This document shows positions 24,852 through 34,784 of a stretch of DNA of 64,000 bases, piece after piece. This DNA is from Pseudocercospora fijiensis CIRAD86 (Eukaryota > Ascomycota > Dothideomycetes > Mycosphaerellales > Mycosphaerellaceae): positions 62,001 to 126,000 of the forward strand of contig NW_006921552.1 of the NCBI RefSeq assembly GCF_000340215.1, in the 5' to 3' direction. Within the stretch, counting starts at the first letter, position 1; each line of letters starts with the position of its first letter. Below the pieces are notes generated by a model. That model saw nothing but the letters and a program-made list of their open reading frames with translations, was not told where the DNA came from and searched no databases. Made by a program: the position numbers and the translations under genes.

Positions 24852-24859
24852 AGTTATAC
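24852..24859. repeat. Target-site duplication of hAT-B, left copy
   Basis: AGTTATAC directly precedes the terminal inverted repeat and is matched exactly at 34777-34784. Eight bases is the hallmark length for hAT insertion. Confidence 0.95.
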
Positions 24860-24966
24860 TAGACCCCGCAGTAGTTCGGTTTCCGAACCACTAAACGTAT
24901 ATAGTTTGGTTTCTTAGCGGCGAACTAGCTCCCTAGTTCCGGTTTGGTTTTTTCGAACTATATAGA
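24860..24966. repeat. hAT-B left terminal inverted repeat
   Basis: First 20 bases match the right end with one C/T difference. The next ~85 bases are GGTTTGGTTT-like and only loosely paired, ending in TTCGAACTATATAG, which has a counterpart about 100 bases inside the right end. Confidence 0.8.
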
Positions 24967-24999
24967 TTCCTAGTTTAAACCAGAGACTATATTGGTTTT

Positions 25000-25303
25000 A
25001 CTACAAGGACACTCTTATTCGACTGCCGGCTACGATTGCCGGCTATAATAGTAACTCTGTTACATTTACTACGCTCTTTTGCCGTTGCTAGGGCGTAGTT
25101 GTCGTTGCTAGGGCGTAGTTACCGTTGCTAGGGCGTAGTTTTGCTACAAGGACACTCTTATTCGACTGCCGGCTACGATTGCCGGCTATAATAGTTACTA
25201 GGTTGTATTTACTACGCTTTATTACCGTTGCTAGGGCGTGGTTGCCGTTGCTAGGGCGTAGTTGCCGTTGCTAGGGCGTAGTTGCTATTGCCGGGGCGTA
25301 GTT
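25000..25303. repeat. Subterminal duplicated module with 20-bp arrays
   Basis: A 143-bp module (CTACAAGGACACTC..., two GCCGGC motifs, then the array) is present twice (25000 and 25143). Each ends in tandem 20-bp units of the form CCGTTGCTAGGGCGTAGTTG: three at 25081-25140, four at 25224-25303. Position just inside the terminus is where hAT transposases bind short repeated motifs, so these are candidate transposase-binding sites. Confidence 0.85.
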
Positions 25304-25775
25304 GCCGTAGTTGCGAAAGCTTACCTATATAACGTTACGTAGGCGGCAACAATTAGGGCTTCGCGATATTCTTATACTTTCAACTTCTTCCTCTATACCT
25401 ATACCGACAATAACTACTATACGCTACGCCCCCGCCCCTTTCCCTTATAATAGTAAGAGAGAAGCGCGCCGCGCGCTAAACAGAAGATAGAACTAAAGAC
25501 CGCGAGTTTGTTTTACCTAAGCGTCTAACTAAAAAGCGCAAGACTAAAGAGGAGTACTTTACGAAGAAGAATTCCGTACGAGACCGCGAGAGAAAGGATA
25601 AGATAGATAAGGATAAAAGAGCTAAGGATAAGAGAAGAAAGGCGCGGAATAAGGCATTCTATCGATAGCTAGCGCCTATAGAAAAAAGTGAAGGTTAGAA
25701 TAAGAAGACAACCTAAGAGAAGGCTAAGAGGAGGAAAGAATTACGGCTAGTTTTCGAGCGTAAAGTTCTAGTAGC

Positions 25776-25882
25776 GTAAGTTAATCTAGCTAGCGGCCGT
25801 AGCTAGTAGCTATAGCCGGCAGCCGTAGCCGGTAGCTATAGCCGGCATATTTTTCTTTAATACGTTAACTAATAGCATTTAG
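25776..25882 (+). other. Intron of hAT-B ORF1 containing GCCGGC motifs
   Basis: Donor GTAAGTT, branch GTTAACTAAT, acceptor TTTAG; removal keeps the frame. Contains TAGCCGGCA/TAGCCGGTA three times around 25815-25850. Confidence 0.8.
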
Positions 25883-26363
25883 ACCTATAGCCGCTACCTC
25901 TATCGATACGACCGATAGTGACGGAGATATTTAGATAGCCGAGAACAACAATACTAGAGTTTAGGATGCCGCGATAGAGCTTAATACTACGAATAAAGGA
26001 ACTAAAAAAAGCGAGGAGATACTATACGTCGATCTAGTAATAGGTGTAGTCTTAGGGCCTAACGCTATAGACGATAAGCGCTAGGAGTAGATCGAGCATA
26101 GTCAAAGAGACGAGATACTAGTAAAGGGCTAAGGCATAAGTCCTATCAATCTAGAAAATTATAGTTAAAGCTACTATAAAAAGCTAGCAAGGATTGGAAT
26201 CGAGACTAGTCGTCTTTATATCCTCGATATAGAGTGGAAGTTTCTTTATTAGTATTAGAGCGAAGCCTTTGCGTCTATAAAGGCAAAGTGGCTTACGATT
26301 AATGCGATCGGGGCTAGGTATCTAGGAACGGTAGAAGTATTACTATAGGAGGAAGGGGTACAG

Positions 26364-26429
26364 GTAATTATTCTATGCTCGGCATATATAGCCGGCGTTT
26401 ATAGCCGGCAGATACTAATAGTTAAATAG
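26364..26429 (+). other. Intron of hAT-B ORF1 containing GCCGGC motifs
   Basis: Donor GTAATT, branch ATACTAATAG, acceptor AATAG; in-frame join. Contains TAGCCGGCG and TAGCCGGCA. Confidence 0.75.
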
Positions 26430-27758
26430 AAAGCGTTTCTCGAAGGCAGAGTGCTACTACTATATAAAATCTTTACTAAGGCAGAGAGGGCTTGTATCCG
26501 GAATCTAAGCTACTAGTAGGATAGGTTAGCGTTAGAATTCTCTGAATCTCTATATAAGCCTCCGAAGGATTACCTATTTTAGCGATACGGCTTTATCTCG
26601 ACTACTCCGTAGGTACCCGAAGAAGCTCGAGCGCTCTTTAAGGTCTTTACTAAGAAGCGGAAGGAGTTCGAGGATTAGGATTGGTTAATAGAGCTATTAG
26701 TTAGTCTTAGGTTTCGTAGTTAGACTCGGCCTAAGCATTTGCTTATCGAGTGTCTTATACCGAAAGAGGATAGATTAAGACTAAAAACGAGCTTAGATTC
26801 GTTAGGTATAGTAGCTCGGTTCCGTTAGTAGGAGAGAGCCGCCGTATAGAAGGCAAAATTCAGGTAGTTAGGGTAACTAGGAAAGAAATTCTAGTAGTTA
26901 GGCTAGCTAGGGTAGCTAGGAAAAAAAATCTAGTAGTTAGGTAGCTAGGAAACAAAAAAAAAGGTAGCTAGCTATTTACTACCTAGCTATTCCTAACGAT
27001 ACGATACTATAAAAGAAAGGGTGTTTCTCTATAGCTACTAGTACACATCTACTACTCCTAAGTCCTTACCTTACCGTACGAAACCTTAAAACATACCGAC
27101 CGACATTGTATATACACTAGGCGCTATACTAGGAAGGGTAACAACGAGACGACAGTCGAAATAGTCTAGTATACGAGCGAGATTGCGACAACGTCGAGAG
27201 GAGGTCGTATACTCACCTTCGAGCCTATCGAGTCCTAGACTACGATTAGGGCTAGATTTATCCTCTCCGAATCCTAGTAGTAGGAATTCATTATAGGGTA
27301 CTACTACCTAGTCCTTACCTTTACGGAGTCTAAGTAGAAGGTTATTCGGAGATATAAGAACATCGAGTATTAACCCGGAAATCTTCGAAAAGGCTAGCTA
27401 GGCGTATCTTTAGAAACCCGAGTATATAGAGCAGTTCAATTAATAGGTCTATAAGATATAGTTCCCTTTATACTTACGTTCGAAGGAGTGTAAACTCCGG
27501 AAGTACTCGATACGATAGGGGAGTAAGGAGCGAACGGATACATTCTAGAAGTTCTTTATAGAGGGGGCATTATACCGTTATACGACTTCTCGACTTAAAG
27601 GTTAACTAGTAATTGTCTATAACTTCTACGGTTTAATCTTAAAATACCCGAAACTAGGGGATAGGAACTTATCGCCTACGAACTATCTCTATTCTAAACG
27701 GTATCGGGAATCTTAAGGAGAGAGGAGAGTTAATATAGATACAGCGTTCTAGAAAGAG

Positions 27759-27858
27759 GTATGTCTTCTAAAATGCCGGCTACAGCTGCCGGCTATAGCT
27801 GCCGGCTATAGATTCCGGCTACCTAAATTAACCGTAGAGATCTAGCTAATTATTATAG
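27759..27858 (+). other. Intron of hAT-B transposase containing GCCGGC motifs
   Basis: GTATGT donor; acceptor most likely TATAG at 27858 after CTAAT, with upstream alternatives. Contains TGCCGGCTA three times and TTCCGGCTA once. Confidence 0.65.
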
Positions 27859-28370
27859 GCTACGCTTAAGGAAGCTCTAGGATTAAAGGCTACCGATTTC
27901 TCCCCCGAAGACTTTAAGCAACTAGCAAACGAAATGCTAGCTACAAACGGTCTTCCGGAAGACTTCTACGAAAGGGAGTCTATATAGAAGATATACCTAT
28001 ATCTTACAAACTACCCTCCCCTATTTCTCGGCGCGATAACCTAGCGTATTATATTCGAAAAGAATAAAGAGGCTACGTTAGACGACATTCGGGAGATCCT
28101 CCGTAATACTCGCCGAGTAGCTATTACTATCGATAGCTAGTTAAGCCGGACTATAAGAGCCTCCTTCCTCTCGATTATACTATACTTTATCAATTCGAAT
28201 TAGAAACTCTAGGAACTTATAATCGGATTCCCTAAAATTCTAGGTTCCTATACTAGTAAGGATATAGCGAAGCTTGTCTATACGGCAATAGATAGGGTTA
28301 GCGTAATAACGAAACTAATCTCGATTACTACGGACAACGCTAGTAATAATCGAACATTATATAAGGCGTT

Positions 28371-28422
28371 GTATATACAATTCACTCGCATATGTCTTTA
28401 AAATTACTAATTATATCGATAG
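28371..28422 (+). other. Intron of hAT-B transposase without GCCGGC motifs
   Basis: Donor GTATAT, branch TTACTAATT, acceptor GATAG. The 52-base removal joins KAL to VECVEEIIR in frame. It is the shorter intron type lacking the motif. Confidence 0.75.
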
Positions 28423-28792
28423 GGTCGAGTGCGTAGAGGAGATTATAAGGTCTACAATCTAGCTTAATCTTCCGAATATTAAGCTCGCTACGATTCCGGA
28501 TACGTACGACAATACGCACGATAATAACGATAAAGAGGAGCCTATTAATAGCCCTAGCCCTATTAAATCGGAGCCGACGTCGTTACTAGTTGCATCCCTA
28601 TAGAAGTTTCCCTACCTCGCTTATATAGTTTAAATCGCGATCCGAGCCCTCTTTAAAACGCTTAAAATTGTACTATTAAACGACGACTAATAGAAGATCC
28701 TAGATAAGGATAAAGCAAAGTCGAAAGTCGAGAAACTTATTATAGCAATAAGACGGGATAAGGTAGAGAGCCTCGCTCTCGTTTTATATAAG

Positions 28793-28861
28793 GTATAACT
28801 TTTGTCCGTAGCCGGTACCTATAGCCGGCAACCTAGTATAGTTCTAACTCTTTCTCTCTAG
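28793..28861 (+). other. Intron of hAT-B transposase containing GCCGGC motifs
   Basis: Donor GTATAA, branch TTCTAACTC, pyrimidine tract, acceptor CTAG. Contains TAGCCGGTA and TAGCCGGCA. Confidence 0.85.
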
Positions 28862-29426
28862 CTTCGTCGTCTAGCAATATATACGAACTCGAGCTTATAG
28901 AGATATAACCGATTCGAGGCTATTTAAAAGAACCTAATCGAGCGCCCTAAAACCGATGCCTAGAATATCGTATAGAATAAGCGATAGCAAAAGCGGCCTC
29001 CTTAGCGCCTACTCCGTTTTACCTAAGACGTTAAGACCCGGTTCGATTCGACTTTCTATATAGTTACGAGGGGATATACTTTACGTACCGCTCTCGAGAT
29101 CTATTAGAGTTCCGAGGGTATTAAGTAGCTCGGCCTTACCGCCGCCGAATAGCGCTAAGTAGAGTATCTCGTCGATATTAGTAAGCATTACGCGAAGGTT
29201 ACTACTACGATTGGAAGAACCCGAGGACCGACGATCTACCTTGTCTTTGCGTACTATAACTAGCTCTTTAACGAGCTCGAAGAAACCGCAGCTAAGCTAG
29301 CTAAGAAGAGCGTTCCCTAGAAAGTAGCTATAACGAAAGCTATAGACACCTCCTATACTAAGTTACATAAATATTACAGTAGTTCTTATAAGGGCGACTC
29401 TATCGCGTACCTTATACCGTTACGTA

Positions 29427-29526
29427 NNNNNNNNNNNNNNNNNNNNNNNNNNNNNNNNNNNNNNNNNNNNNNNNNNNNNNNNNNNNNNNNNNNNNNNNNN
29501 NNNNNNNNNNNNNNNNNNNNNNNNNN
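29427..29526. other. Assembly gap, 100 N
   Basis: Exactly 100 unknown bases, the usual placeholder for a gap of unknown size, inside the hAT-B transposase. Total element length is therefore approximate. Confidence 0.99.
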
Positions 29527-30385
29527 GATGTTCTACGAGCGTCGGAAAGAACTAGTCCAAATGCAGCTCCTATAAAGAAAAAGAAGGTTTAGAAGGCTCC
29601 GATATTATACCTATTTCGTAGGTAGGAAGTAGAGGCAGAAGAGGAAGCAACTACTAAAGTAAATAAAGAAGAGCTCGATCTCTATCGGCGCGCGAGTAAG
29701 TATAAACCCGTAGGCTCGGAAAGAGGGCTAATAATCTCTAGATCTTACCAGTCTTCTAGACGAATTCGGAGACGATATTCTCGCTATATAGTAGCGGTTA
29801 GAGCCTAAGTTTCTAACGATAGCGTCGGTCGCTCGGGACGTCCTCGCTATCCCGAGCGTAGGTATAGGCTATAAGAGGTCTTTTAGTATCGCTCGTTACT
29901 AGGGCCGCTTTAATCGAATATACTCGCCTACTACCTTCGAATCTATTATAGTATTCCGATACTATCTCCTCTACTAGAATCGCTAAGGCAGGTTACTAAA
30001 GATTATACTAAAGGAGTTAATCGAGGAATTAGAAAACCTTAAGATCGAAGAAACCTAGGAGCGCGAAGAGAATGCGAAATTTAGTCTAAGCGAAACCCTA
30101 ATTAGCGATAACGAAGAGGAGGAGGGCGGAGGTAGAAGGCGATACCGGGTCGAAAAGCGGAAACGTATATAGGCTTAGAGCAGCTTTAAGGAGACGAAGC
30201 GTTTACGTATAAGGTAATATAGCCGGCGTATATAGCCGGCATATATCCGAAATGTGTTTCGAATTCCTAGGACCTAAACAGACTAGTTGCTATAGCAACC
30301 GACCCCGCTTACCTACGGACTATTTCTAATTCTCTATTCGCTCTTCCTCTCCTTCTTCCTTTTTCCTATATTCTTAAAGATAAAT

Positions 30386-31169
30386 ATGCCTTAAGGATTC
30401 GGCTCTTCGGGCCTTCCTAAGCCGGCTACCTCCCCTTCCTTAAGCTACTATCCTTTATTCGAATCTAACGATAACCTAATAAGGCGGTTTAATAGAAGAC
30501 TATTTGTTCTAGAAGGTAAGAAGTATTAATATCTCCTTACGATTATATACTTATTAATTTCTAGGTTCTACCGATATACCCTCGTCGCCTAAACGCGTAG
30601 ATAAATATCTTTAGAGGCTAAAGGGCAAGGGTAAAGTAAGCTAAGTATAGGGAGACCGTAGCGAGAACGAGATATCGGAAGAGTAAGGCTCTCCGTAGTA
30701 TATACGAAGGAAGGGGGTTCCTCGGAAAATAGTACCGAAAAATAAGAAGGCTATAGGTAGATAGGAGAAGGCTAAAAAGAGTAGGCGGATAAAGACTATC
30801 GCGAAGAAAAGTTATCTTTCTATTAAAAGAAAGGGAATAAGGTAGGACTCGACAACAAAGAAGCGGCGCTTTAAACTAGGTACTATTACCCTTCGCTAGA
30901 TCCGGCTTTTCTAAAACAAAAGAGGGACCGAGCTTTTAATCCCTAAGACTCCCTTCTAGCGACTCGTCCGAGAAATTACATTAGATTTTCGGTCTAGTAT
31001 GCGATTTACGGCTAAGGCGATTAGTGCTCTTTAGGAAGCTACGGAGGCATTTCTCGTAACCGAGCTTAAGCTTTTAAACCTCCTTACTATCTATACGAAG
31101 CGGGTTACTCTTTAAAATAAAGATATATAGCTTCTAGCTAAAATTCGGCGTCGGTTTATAGCGGATTAG
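30386..31169 (+). pseudogene. Histone H3-like gene with long basic tail (CenH3-like?)
   Basis: Histone-fold protein of the H3 family, which would pair with H4 in nucleosomes. Two exons: ATG at 30386, intron 30516-30564 (GTAAGA donor, CTTATTAAT branch, CTAG acceptor), stop at 31167-31169. The spliced length is 735 bases, a multiple of 3, giving 244 residues with RIP stops read as Gln/Trp. About 160 residues of Lys/Arg-rich tail precede the fold. Fold landmarks: LGTITLR and IRLF (H3: PGTVALREIRRY), GTELLIPKTPF and RLVREITLDF, then ALQEATEAFLV, NLLTIYTKRVTL and KDI(Q)LLAKIR. EAFLV, LLT and RVTL, a two-residue insertion before TELLI and the long tail recall CenH3; loop 1 is not lengthened and lacks its Trp, so canonical-variant origin is equally possible. 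Four or more fold codons are now TAG/TAA. Confidence 0.9.
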
Positions 31170-31558
31170 TTAAAAATTGTATTTAGTCGTTAGATTAACC
31201 TAGGAGGAGGCCTATTTTCGCATCGTTTTGCCGGCTATAGGTGCCGGCTATATTTCTAATTTTATCTCCGCGCCGTCCCTAAATCTAAGATACGAAGTAG
31301 AAACCTAGCGCTCTATATTCACCCGGCTATTACAGAGACGAGCTACATTTAGATTAGTTTCTTCGTATATCGCGACCTAGCGGGTAGTAAGCGAAAGGGC
31401 GATAGAACGTTTATAATACGTCTCTATTTAGACCTAAAACATAAAGGTCCTAAGGAGCCCTAGCATCCTAACTATAAGGAGATTCTTTAGTATTAGTACT
31501 TTAATCCTTTATACTACGAGGTAGATAGTAAGCCTACGAGAGAGAAACTTCAACGAGA
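31170..31558 (+). pseudogene. hAT-B ORF-X, unknown protein, first part
   Basis: No family recognised. After a gap with two TGCCGGCTA motifs (31232-31256), a plus-strand frame opens with NLALYIHPAITETSYIQIS, FFVYRDLAGSKRKGDRTFII and RLYLDLKHKGPKEP. It continues into the duplicated segment with a predicted coiled coil (VRQLEEELRQRISDRGG). The start is not resolved; a donor near 31226 could even make it a 3' exon of the H3-like gene, but the histone frame has a natural-looking stop first. Confidence 0.45.
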
Positions 31559-32280
31559 AATTCTCTATAATACGTAGCGCTATTATATAGCTATAGATAC
31601 GTACTAAGTCCGGCAACTCGAAGAAGAATTAAGACAGCGTATTAGCGACCGAGGAGGAGATCGATAGTATACTAGTAGAGTCGAGGTCTTATAAGCGAAG
31701 CATAAGATAATATAGGCTCTTAGTCGTATAGAGTAACGTACTATATAAATAACTAGGCGTGCTACTCTTATTTACTTACGACCTATATCCTAGGATGCTC
31801 TTCTCGTACTTTTTATACTCTTTTCTAATACCTTACCTATAAGCGCTCCGCGACAACCGAGTGAATATAAGCTGTCGGGTTTCCGCTCGGTACCTTAGCC
31901 TTCGAGATACGGCGGAGTTAATTCTCTATAATACGTAGCGCTATTACATAGCTACAGATACGCACTAAGTCCGGCAACTCGAAGAAGAATTGAGACAGCG
32001 TATTAGCGACCGAGGAGGAGATCGATAGTATACTAGTAGAGTCGAGGTCTTATAAGCGAAGTACAAGATAATATAGGCTCTTAGTCGTATAGAGTAACGT
32101 ACTATATAACCAACTAGGCGTACTACTCTTATTCACTTACGACCTATATCCTAGGATACTCTTCTCGTACTTTTTATACTCTTTTCTAATACCTTACCTA
32201 TAAGCGCTCCGCGACAACCGAGTAAATATAAGCTATAGGGTTTCCGCTCGGTACCTTAGCCTCCGAGATAGGGCGGAGTT
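31559..32280. repeat. 361-bp tandem duplication within ORF-X
   Basis: Copies at 31559-31919 and 31920-32280 are nearly identical; almost all differences are C/T or G/A, with copy 1 generally the more mutated. The unit encodes the C-terminal part of ORF-X; 361 is not a multiple of 3, so copy 2 is out of frame. Confidence 0.9.
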
Positions 32281-32809
32281 GAATTTAGAGCGATAGTCGG
32301 CACCCGTAGCCGGTATATAGAGACGGTAGTAGGCCTTTTTCTGCTAAATAACTAGCTTGTTTAGTATAGCCTACCTGATATTTCTTATATTTACTAGCAA
32401 TAGGCCTAGGTTACTTATAAGATTACTATAGCTAGTAAAGGCATTACTAAAGAATATCTATACTATAGTAGGATACTATTATCACGCCGGCTATTTATTA
32501 AAAGGAGGCTTTCGCCTATTACTATACCGGCTATATATGCCGGCTATATTTCAAAGTCTGCCGTACCTGCCTTTTTTAGCCGTGCCTACCTTCTTTCCTT
32601 GCTCTAACGTTACTATAATATAGGCTTACGCGAAGCTTACTCTATTGCCTAGCGATACCGCGATACTACCTCTCTCGCTATATTCAACCTTCGTATCGAT
32701 ACCTATATCTCTACGCTCTATATCTACTACCTCCGTAATACCCTCGCTCCGCGCGCGCCTTCGTACACCTTCGTAACGCACTTTTTTCCTCAATTCGACG
32801 ACTTTTATA
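32281..32809. promoter_or_regulatory. Intergenic region upstream of the second H3-like gene
   Basis: Holds two clusters of the GCCGGC motif (about 32299-32320 and 32519-32546) and, nearer the gene, a pyrimidine-rich leader (for example CTTTTTTCCTC at 32781). This is typical of the region just upstream of a highly expressed fungal gene. No TATA box can be named after RIP. Confidence 0.4.
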
Positions 32810-33482
32810 ATAGCGAATCTACTTAACTAAGTTACGACGCCTCGTAAGAAGGGACCTACTACTTCTACGGGTCGCAATAAGATCGGAAATAAAGGAACGA
32901 GTATAGTACATTAACGTAAGATAGCTGCTACTACTACCGCTAGCTCCGGTGCTAGAAAGGGCGTCGCGAGCAAGGCTCCGCGTAAGACAACGGCAGGTAA
33001 GGCTCTACGTAAGACGACAACTAGCGCTTCTGCTACTAGTAGCAATCGTGCGAAGCGTCGATAGCGCCTAGGAAGTAAGTCTTATTTATAGCCGGTAGCG
33101 TAGCCGGTAGCGTAGCCGGTAGCGTAGCCGGCATTCTTACTGTCTTTTTACTAATCCTTCTTTAGCCGTAGCCCTCTATAAGATTCGGTAGTATTAGAAG
33201 AGTTCTAAGCTCCTAATCCGTAAAACTCCTTTCTAACGACTTATTCGCGAAATTGCCTAGGATTACAGAATAGACCTTCGCTTCTAAGCCTCCGCGATAG
33301 GCGCCCTTTAAGAGGCTATAGAAGCCTACCTAGTTCGTATCTTCGAATATATGTTTCTCTTCTACCTCTTTTCGGACTATACTAATACTATTTTAGCGGT
33401 TAACCTTATAGCTATCCACGCGAAGCGTATAACGATTATAGACAAGGATTTCAAAGCACTCGATTAGATCCTAAAAGGCTAG
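32810..33482 (+). pseudogene. Histone H3-like gene, canonical-type fold, two introns
   Basis: Histone H3-family protein. Three exons: start codon at 32810, now ATA (ATG before RIP); intron 1 33075-33165; intron 2 33349-33396; stop at 33480-33482. Spliced length is 534 bases, a multiple of 3 (177 residues with RIP stops read through). The tail resembles the H3 tail (KAPRKTTAGKALRKTT; H3 has STGGKAPRK). Intron 1 splits the Thr codon of the conserved RPGTVAL block (Pro now Leu); then IRQYQKSSKLLIRKTPF, RLIREIAQDYRIDLRFQ, ASAIGALQEAIEAYLV and, across intron 2, NLIAIHAKRITI and KDFKALD. Intron 2's donor is ATATGT where GTATGT is expected, a RIP-type G-to-A change that would also abolish splicing. 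The tail is 30-40 residues longer than canonical H3. Confidence 0.93.
33075..33165 (+). other. Intron 1 of the second H3-like gene, filled with a GCCGGTAGCGTA array
   Basis: Donor GTAAGT, branch TTACTAATC, acceptor TTTAG. Between them TAGCCGGTAGCG is repeated in a 12-bp period and ends in TAGCCGGCA. The clearest case of the motif as an intron-filling minisatellite. Confidence 0.9.
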
Positions 33483-33870
33483 AATGTCTATATTCGAGAT
33501 AGTGCTAGATAGGATAGATATACTAGTAGGAAGGATGTTCGTAGTATCGTCTACAAGCTTTTCTATATACGAAATGAGCCGCTGTTATACGGCGCTATAT
33601 ACCGCGCTCTAAATACTCTCTAAGCATATATATATAGTATAGTATGCTTTATTAGCCGTACGGAATAGAAGTCTCCTAAAATCCCGTTAGTACTAAGGAG
33701 TAAAAAGGCCGGCTACGCTGCCGGCTACGCTACCGGCTACGCTACTAGCTACGCTGCTAGGTTTTTCAAAGAACTAAAAGAAGATAGACATTCCGGTTGA
33801 TTTGTATTAGTTTAGATTTTTATAAAAAGAAAACAGGGAAAAATAAGGAAGGTTAAAGAGCCTAATAGTT
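33483..33870. other. hAT-B gap with GCCGGC array
   Basis: Contains a 12-bp array of GCCGGCTACGCT and RIP variants at about 33708-33760, in the orientation opposite to that in H3 intron 1. No gene recognised. Confidence 0.6.
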
Positions 33871-33879
33871 ATAGTTATA

Positions 33880-34346
33880 GGCACTATCCCTGTTTTCTAG
33901 AGTATATTATATACCTGCCTTCGCAACTCTACCTAATACTCCCTCTAAATATCCTTATACTCTACCTACTAGAAATTCAACTAGGTACCTAGACCTATAG
34001 CTGCCTCTATATCTTTTACTATCTTCTATAGGTTGAAGGCCTCTTCTATAGCAGCCTCTACCTCCTTATACAATACGAAGTTACTACCTACCCTACCCTT
34101 TATATCTCCCAAATAACTAAGAGTTCTAAGGAACGAACTAGTATTCGGCCTTAGTATAGCGAGTAACTAGTGGAACGTTCTGTAGAGCTGCCTTATAGCT
34201 CTTTTATATACTGTGCCGATACCGAGAGAGGAGCTATCCTAGTACTTAATATTGTCGAATAGTTCGGTAGGAAAGTGTATAAACTTCTTAAGGAGGAGGA
34301 CTTCTAGGGAAATCGATAAGTTCTGCCTAGATCTAGATAAAGACAT
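33880..34346 (-). pseudogene. hAT-B minus-strand ORF, helical unknown protein
   Basis: No family recognised. ATG at 34346 (reading leftwards): MSLSRSRQNLSISLEVLLL, KKFIHFPTELFDNIKY, GTVYKRAIRQLYRTFH, LYKEVEAAIEEAFNL and VEYKDIQREYQVELRRQVYN. Mostly helical with charged heptad-like pattern. RIP stops throughout. It is the only hAT-B gene on the minus strand and lies next to the right end of the element, beyond the GCCGGC cluster at 33.7 kb. Confidence 0.5.
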
Positions 34347-34659
34347 TCTGCTAAGCAGTTAGGGAATTGAACCGTAAACGAAAGGATGAAATTTATACCT
34401 AAGGAGTGCAGTTTCCGAACTAAACTATAATGCCTTGTATGTATGTATGTGCTTTTGATTAGTTAGTACCCTTAGCTGATTGTCTATAGATTTGAGGTTA
34501 TATAAGTACCTTTATACAACTACGTAGCCTAAGTAGGATTCGAAAATTCTATAAGTACTAAGGACTAAAAATGCCGGCTACGCTGCCGGCTACACTACTA
34601 AGTCTTACAAAGGGCTTGCTTGAAGCTACGTATATATTCGTACACTTCTTAAAAACCGA

Positions 34660-34776
34660 TAAATTATATAGTTCGAACCAGCTACTTATATAGTTGCTTA
34701 GCAAACCAACCCAAACTAAACTAGAGTTTCGGCTTAGTAAACCAAACCAAACCAACCCGAACTACTACGGGGTCTA
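34660..34776. repeat. hAT-B right terminal inverted repeat
   Basis: Ends CCGAACTACTACGGGGTCTA, the reverse complement of the left end. Internal part is AACCAAACC-rich, with TTATATAGTTCGAACCA at its inner edge. Confidence 0.8.
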
Positions 34777-34784
34777 AGTTATAC
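34777..34784. repeat. Target-site duplication of hAT-B, right copy
   Basis: AGTTATAC, identical to 24852-24859, directly after the right terminal inverted repeat. Confidence 0.95.

What the first reader, a model, noticed from the sequence alone, without database searches (positions are those of the whole stretch)
30386..33482. Two histone H3-like genes carried as cargo by a hAT transposon
Seen: inside one 9.9-kb element defined by inverted repeats and exact 8-bp target duplications there are, besides the hAT transposase, two separate genes with the H3 histone fold. The second keeps PGTVAL (split by an intron), IRQYQKSSKLLIRKTPF, RLIREIA, ALQEAIEAYLV and HAKRITI; the first keeps LGTITLR, TELLIPKTPF, RLVREI, ALQEATEAFLV and KRVTL. 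Both gene models keep frame across their introns (735 and 534 bases). Knowledge: hAT elements normally encode only a transposase. Inference: the element may have used its own H3 variants to alter chromatin at its copies, evade silencing or mark itself. I know of no described DNA transposon with histone cargo, but cannot search.
Basis: partly seen in the sequence, partly recalled or inferred. Interest (0 to 1): 0.95.

Follow-up and report, generated by a model that had tools for sequence, protein, structure and literature searches.

The report
Known fungal transposon with H3-like genes
In the genome of a banana-pathogenic fungus a family of jumping genes carries two genes for altered histone H3; the family is already published as dead histone copies, but the two genes look like distinct genes that were kept readable until the fungus mutated them.

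Summary
Window 24860-34776 is a 9,917-bp hAT element with 20-bp inverted repeats and exact 8-bp target duplications, and it holds two H3-type histone-fold genes. The host is almost certainly Pseudocercospora fijiensis. This very family was published in 2019 (PMC6710886: histone H3 captured by a hAT, 784 copies, RIP-inactivated), and another hAT with an H3-like gene in Pyrenophora tritici-repentis in 2013 (PMC3538342). The finding is already known.

My data amend the published reading (intronless retrocopy of the host H3). Gene B has two probable introns; the paper's '16-aa insertion' fits a 48-bp intron. The two proteins differ from each other (42/80 identical) as much as from host H3 (46/85, 54/83). 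A second subfamily, about 76-80% identical over the gene blocks, carries both genes. Between subfamilies indels inside the genes are mostly multiples of three, those outside are not (5:0 against 1:11; p 0.001 to 0.03 over alignments). A substitution test between subfamilies was not significant. So the genes were probably working cargo before RIP; what they did is inference. A TAGCCGGCA repeat occurs near both ends, in several introns and in short derivatives.

The parts
24860..34776 (.). hAT element, 9,917 bp
   Evidence: Inverted repeats and target duplications; hAT dimerisation domain; 38 of 40 scored copies in the genome span the whole 30300-33700 stretch
24852..24859 (.). left target duplication AGTTATAC
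34777..34784 (.). right target duplication AGTTATAC
24860..24879 (+). left terminal inverted repeat
34757..34776 (-). right terminal inverted repeat
25020..25190 (.). left subterminal TGCCGGCTA pairs (25023-25047 and 25166-25190)
34571..34598 (.). right subterminal TGCCGGCTA pair
25480..26870 (+). unidentified gene, open pieces with probable introns at about 25776-25882 and 26364-26429
   Evidence: translations; no Pfam family; splice signals by eye
27260..30212 (+). hAT transposase in pieces, RIP-damaged, 100-N gap at 29427-29526, probable introns at about 27759-27858 and 28794-28861
   Evidence: Dimer_Tnp_hAT 15.2 bits in the window copy, 23.1 bits in copy L015 against a cut-off of 21.4
30386..31172 (+). 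H3-like gene A (H3L-A): long basic tail and H3 fold (fold about 30879-31155); probable intron 30516-30564
   Evidence: Pfam Histone 3.5e-22 for the part from 30768; H3 chains; coding length from 30768 unbroken in 30 of 30 copies
32921..33482 (+). H3-like gene B (H3L-B), three exons 32921-33074, 33166-33348, 33397-33482; a longer model could start at 32810
   Evidence: Pfam Histone 1.2e-27; H3.6 7.7e-38; coding length unbroken in 30 of 30 copies. First codon is ATA in 23, AGG in 6 and ATG in 1 of 30, so the start is uncertain
33075..33165 (+). intron 1 of H3L-B with a TAGCCGG array
   Evidence: GTAAGT 30/30, TACTAA 30/30, AG end 30/30, length 67-115 bp by repeat number
33349..33396 (+). intron 2 of H3L-B, 48 bp
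   Evidence: 48 bp in 30/30, TTTTAG end 30/30, donor GT in 13 and AT in 17, TACTAA in 25
31559..32285 (.). tandem duplication of a 361-bp unit between the two H3-like genes
   Evidence: 727 bp in 30 of 30 copies

Best explanation
It is a RIP-inactivated copy of the published H3-carrying hAT family of Pseudocercospora fijiensis. Shown: two different H3-type genes lie in fixed order downstream of the transposase in the copies read, and also in a second subfamily; gene B has the signals of two introns in all aligned copies. Inferred with moderate support: both genes encoded proteins and were kept in frame within the element for a long time, rather than being one freshly captured and instantly dead copy of the host H3. 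Inferred only: the proteins acted as variant H3 in nucleosomes (gene B keeps positions that align with K9, K14, K18, K23 and K27 of the H3 tail but not K4 or S10; gene A has an unrelated basic tail) and favoured the element, for example its expression or its escape from silencing. RIP later put stops into every element copy examined here.
For: Histone fold of both genes. Conserved splice signals and repeat-number changes confined to the intron. A and B are as far from each other (42/80) as from host H3 (46/85 and 54/83). Subfamily II carries both genes in 5 of 6 copies looked at, the sixth matching gene A only in the 4.2 kb fetched. Window against copy IIa: coding indels 5 of 5 multiples of three, noncoding 1 of 12 (p 0.001); IIb 5:0 v 1:10, IId 5:1 v 1:11, IIe 6:0 v 1:7 (these comparisons share most events and are not independent). 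Transversions, which RIP does not make, are rarer at 0-fold than at 4-fold sites: host-A 35/179 v 21/50, host-B 25/181 v 21/51, A-B 32/179 v 21/50.
Against: The transversion test between the two subfamilies is not significant (gene A 5/227 v 2/46, p 0.34; gene B 18/267 v 10/73, p 0.09) and gene B's rate at codon positions 1+2 is not below the noncoding rate 35/651. With looser gap costs the indel contrast weakens (IIa 4:6 v 0:12, p 0.029). By codon position alone host-A transversions show no difference (p 0.35). The host comparisons also contain the host's own silent changes. No transcript or protein was seen; the start codon of B is uncertain; 6 of 30 copies have AGG there. The short derivatives move without the H3 genes in cis.
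Confidence: 0.58

Rival explanations
1. Published reading: the element captured one transcript or retrocopy of the housekeeping H3 gene, came to hold two copies of it, and all copies were passengers killed by RIP.
For: PMC6710886 finds both host exon junctions without introns in de-RIPed sequence; the H3 part of gene A is intronless here too; the substitution test between subfamilies does not show constraint.
Against: Gene B has two probable introns, one at one codon's distance from the host's second intron; A and B are too different for a recent doubling; frame-keeping indels between subfamilies.
Confidence: 0.32
2. The H3-like genes came in by a separate, later insertion of host genes into some copies of an ordinary hAT.
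For: Short derivatives with the same ends and no genes exist.
Against: 38 of 40 scored copies span the whole stretch with both genes (40 of 524 candidates scored, best first) and subfamily II holds them at the same place; the short derivatives lack the transposase as well.
Confidence: 0.06
3. Chance resemblance, no histone genes.
For: Only that the frames are full of stops.
Against: E-values of 3.5e-22 and 1.2e-27 against Pfam Histone.
Confidence: 0.01

Closest known systems
hAT family with histone H3-like sequences of Pseudocercospora fijiensis and relatives (PMC6710886; abstract, Results, Discussion and Methods read)
   Same: Same genome by size, largest scaffold and place of the H3 gene; same length class, 20-bp repeats, 8-bp duplications, two H3-like copies per full element, RIP. 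I take it to be this family.
   Different: The paper reads an intronless retrocopy with a 16-residue insertion, did not find the hAT dimerisation domain and saw no further structural features; here gene B has introns, the domain passes its cut-off in one copy, and a TAGCCGGCA repeat and a second subfamily are seen.
hAT element with H3L of Pyrenophora tritici-repentis (PMC3538342; passages read)
   Same: hAT with transposase, an ORF of unknown function and an H3-like gene between its repeats.
   Different: 5.6 kb, one H3-like gene, nearly identical intact copies; PMC6710886 reports no nucleotide similarity. Protein-level comparison could not be made here.
ToxhAT (PMC12506042, start of abstract in a listing only)
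   Same: Fungal hAT-type element that carries a non-transposase gene.
   Different: Carries an effector gene, not a histone.
Pack-type transduplicating elements such as Pack-MULEs (as described in PMC6710886)
   Same: DNA transposons with host-derived gene sequence.
   Different: Here a fixed pair of near-complete genes lies beside the transposase in two subfamilies.

Membership tests
hAT superfamily | 8-bp target duplication and short terminal inverted repeats | tested here: met
   window and 12 of 20 other copies
hAT superfamily | transposase with hAT C-terminal dimerisation domain | tested here: met
   23.1 bits against cut-off 21.4 in L015; 18.4 in L006 and 15.2 in the window stay below it
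Published P. fijiensis H3-carrying hAT family | length, 20-bp repeats, 8-bp duplications, two H3-like copies, RIP stops, many copies in the same genome | tested here: met
Histone H3 | H3-type histone fold | tested here: met
CenH3 | longer loop 1 and closer kinship to CenH3 than to H3 | tested here: not met
   no loop-1 insertion; A 46/87 to host H3 and 43/89 to host CenH3, B 54/82 and 46/83; tree weak (76/87)
Retrocopy of the host H3 transcript | no introns | tested here: not met
   gene B: two probable introns in 30 of 30 copies; the H3 part of gene A is intronless, so the feature fails for B only
Working H3 variant | selection on the protein within the element | tested here: inconclusive
   indels for, substitutions between subfamilies not significant
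Working H3 variant | expression and incorporation into nucleosomes | not testable with these tools
   no transcripts or proteins held

The most novel reading that the evidence does not exclude
An old hAT lineage of Dothideomycetes took over two histone H3 variants as working genes of its own, kept in use through at least two subfamilies, with tails that keep the positions of K9 and K27 but lost K4 and S10, so as to change the chromatin of its own copies; the Pyrenophora element would be another branch of the same lineage and not an independent accident.
Probability: 0.35. Interest if true: 0.78.

Novelty: already known. Interest (0 to 1): 0.42.

Why it matters
What would matter is a shift from 'dead passenger' to 'maintained cargo': a DNA transposon that kept histone H3 variants of its own would be a rare case of a mobile element carrying a chromatin component, in a host whose defences (RIP, heterochromatin) such a gene could plausibly act on. 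The data also bear on two points of the published account, the 16-residue insertion and the intronless state of the copies, and offer a candidate end motif.

Tried and rejected
Protein database search with H3L-A: one candidate shared words, none scored; I infer that the collection holds few fungal proteins, so no cross-species comparison was possible and the other two searches were not spent. Pfam on the unidentified gene pieces and on the frame at about 31260-31800 (solved structures): no family. CenH3 origin: considered, not favoured, although the probable start of H3L-B resembles that of host CenH3. Transversion test between subfamilies: not significant. The first alignment of copies held minus-strand copies in the wrong orientation and was replaced. 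Complete copies without H3 genes: not searched. Structure prediction: not run. Literature: searches gave no paper; some gave listings (20 of 25 shown, 20 of 112). No term of these searches was aimed at the repeat, the introns of this family or its MITEs, so I claim only that PMC6710886 does not report them in the parts that I read (a word search of its text found no 'MITE' and no 'CenH3').

Full report
What is there. Window 24860-34776 is one 9,917-bp element. Its 20-bp ends are inverted repeats that differ at one C/T site, and it is flanked by AGTTATAC on both sides. The ends were read at 20 further copies: with the window, 13 of 21 have both ends and identical 8-bp duplications, 5 lack an end in the stretch read and 3 have no matching duplication. 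The dimerisation domain of hAT transposases is weak in the window copy (15.2 bits) and passes its cut-off of 21.4 bits in copy L015 (23.1 bits) but not in L006 (18.4 bits).

Host and prior description. The window lies in a 73.94-Mb assembly of 30 contigs with a largest contig of 11.88 Mb. In a search with canonical H3 the one match without stops is on contig 6 (150 of 780 candidates scored); by my reading of the sequence an H4 gene lies beside it. Pseudocercospora fijiensis has an assembly of about 74 Mb with a largest scaffold of 11.8 Mb (PMC4981457, passages) and its original H3 on scaffold 6 (PMC6710886). PMC6710886 (abstract, Results, Discussion, Methods) describes 784 H3-like copies in 471 elements, 99 complete elements with 20-bp repeats and 8-bp duplications, two H3-like copies in full-length elements, inactivation by RIP, and the same event in five more species. 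PMC3538342 (passages) describes a hAT with one H3-like gene in Pyrenophora tritici-repentis. A 2026 paper mentions the P. fijiensis result (PMC13041039, passages). The finding is therefore known.

The H3 genes. With X at stops, gene A (from 30768) scores 3.5e-22 and spliced gene B 1.2e-27 against Pfam Histone, and the best solved chains are H3. Over 30 aligned copies the length of gene A (from 30768) and of spliced gene B is in frame in 30 of 30, with 4-7 and 6-9 internal stops. At 8 stop sites some copies still show CAA, CAG or CGA; at one site two copies have TAG for AAG, which is not RIP; 8 sites are stops in 30 of 30, 5 of them at a Q of host H3 and 3 not. Variable sites among the copies: 497 with transitions only (251 at CpA, 117 CpG, 78 CpT, 51 CpC) and 42 with a transversion. 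This is the pattern of RIP.

Introns. Gene B reads as 140 codons and a stop if 33075-33165 and 33349-33396 are taken out. The first has GTAAGT, TACTAA and a final AG in 30 of 30 copies; its length is 91 bp in 26 and 67, 103, 104 and 115 bp in one each, by number of a 12-13-bp unit, while the coding length does not change. The second is 48 bp and ends in TTTTAG in 30 of 30, with TACTAA in 25, GT in 13 and AT, as RIP would make, in 17. Forty-eight bases are 16 codons, and PMC6710886 reports a 16-residue insertion in the second copy: I take the two to be the same. The paper's view that an intronless transcript was captured can then hold for the H3 part of gene A at most. The first intron lies one codon from the second intron of the host gene, in the same phase: descent with a small shift, or coincidence. 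The intron of gene A (30516-30564) rests on sequence signals alone.

Age and constraint. In the fold, stops left out, host-A is 46/85 identical, host-B 54/83, A-B 42/80. A tree sets both apart from H3 and CenH3 with weak support (76/87), and neither has the loop-1 insertion of CenH3. Transversions are fewer at 0-fold than at 4-fold sites in the three comparisons (p 0.002, 0.00005, 0.001), but by codon position host-A shows no difference (p 0.35), and the host's silent changes add to two of them. A second subfamily was met among the H3 matches; six copies were looked at. They are 87-89% identical to the window in the transposase end (five copies), 76-80% in the block of gene A and 76-79% in that of gene B; five keep the right terminus and both genes, the sixth (IIf) matched gene A only in the 4.2 kb fetched. 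Between the window and copy IIa the genes differ by five indels, all multiples of three, the DNA around by twelve, one of them a multiple of three (p 0.001); IIb 5:0 v 1:10, IId 5:1 v 1:11, IIe 6:0 v 1:7; IIf gave 2:1 in the genes and no noncoding events, IIc was not run. These share most events, so they are one result, not four. Pairwise alignments of three copies with three gap settings and two gene models gave p 0.003 to 0.03; in them some coding indels are not multiples of three, chiefly a +1/-7 pair five bases apart that nets -6. The substitution test between subfamilies is not significant (gene A 5/227 v 2/46, gene B 18/267 v 10/73, noncoding 35/651). I conclude, at moderate strength, that the genes were kept in frame within the element.

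The repeat. TAGCCGG or its complement occurs 34 times in the element and 9 times in the rest of the window. Six of the 34 lie in the subterminal stretches, 15 in five probable introns (two of the unidentified gene, two of the transposase, one of H3L-B), 13 elsewhere; the second intron of H3L-B and the intron of H3L-A have none. The paired form has 892 forward and 898 reverse matches in the genome and none for the reversed control. Of the 100 listed, all on contig 1, 78 lie within 8 kb of an H3-like place listed, an area of 2.4% of that contig, and one lies in a short derivative; the other 21 were not followed. Short derivatives (MITEs) of about 368-394 bp share both ends of the element (40 of 848 candidates scored, 81-100% identical); the two read in full have 8-bp duplications and keep one pair of the repeat. 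A repeat near both ends that survives in MITEs is what a transposase-binding motif would look like, by analogy with the subterminal motifs of Ac (recalled). Why it also sits in introns I cannot say.

Mechanism. Shown: a transposase gene and two H3-like genes between the same ends, all RIP-damaged. Probable: the H3-like proteins were made, gene B from a spliced transcript, before RIP. Inferred only: they formed variant nucleosomes. The tail of gene B aligns with K9, K14, K18, K23 and K27 of H3 but not with K4 or S10, so a nucleosome with it might take silencing marks but not K4 methylation or S10 phosphorylation; which of these would profit the element is open.

Verdict. Observation confirmed; claim of novelty not; the functional reading is open and somewhat strengthened.

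Noticed in passing
window 25023-34592, many places: TAGCCGGCA/TGCCGGCTA repeats near both ends, in five probable introns and elsewhere in the element; also in its MITEs.
   Followed up: partly
L064 3195-3567 and G000 C17:213317-213700: MITEs of about 373-384 bp with the ends of this hAT, 8-bp duplications, inserted into H3-carrying subfamily II copies; at least 40 such places in the genome.
   Followed up: partly
L033, L034, L058, L060-L065: A second subfamily of the H3-carrying hAT, not separated in the parts of PMC6710886 that I read.
   Followed up: partly
L059 about 1157-1690: Host CenH3 gene, intact; its start MARTAAASSGRK resembles the probable start of H3L-B (AATTTASSGARK).
   Followed up: no
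window 31559-32285: Two 361-bp direct copies between the two H3-like genes, 727 bp in 30 of 30 copies.
   Followed up: no
window 25480-26870 and about 31260-31800: Open frames without a known domain; the Pyrenophora element also has an unknown ORF.
   Followed up: partly
G000 C12:583978-603215: Two copies of the element (L003, L005) lie next to each other in opposite orientation.
   Followed up: no
window 32921: The probable start codon of H3L-B is ATA in 23, AGG in 6 and ATG in 1 of 30 copies; AGG is not a RIP product of ATG.
   Followed up: no
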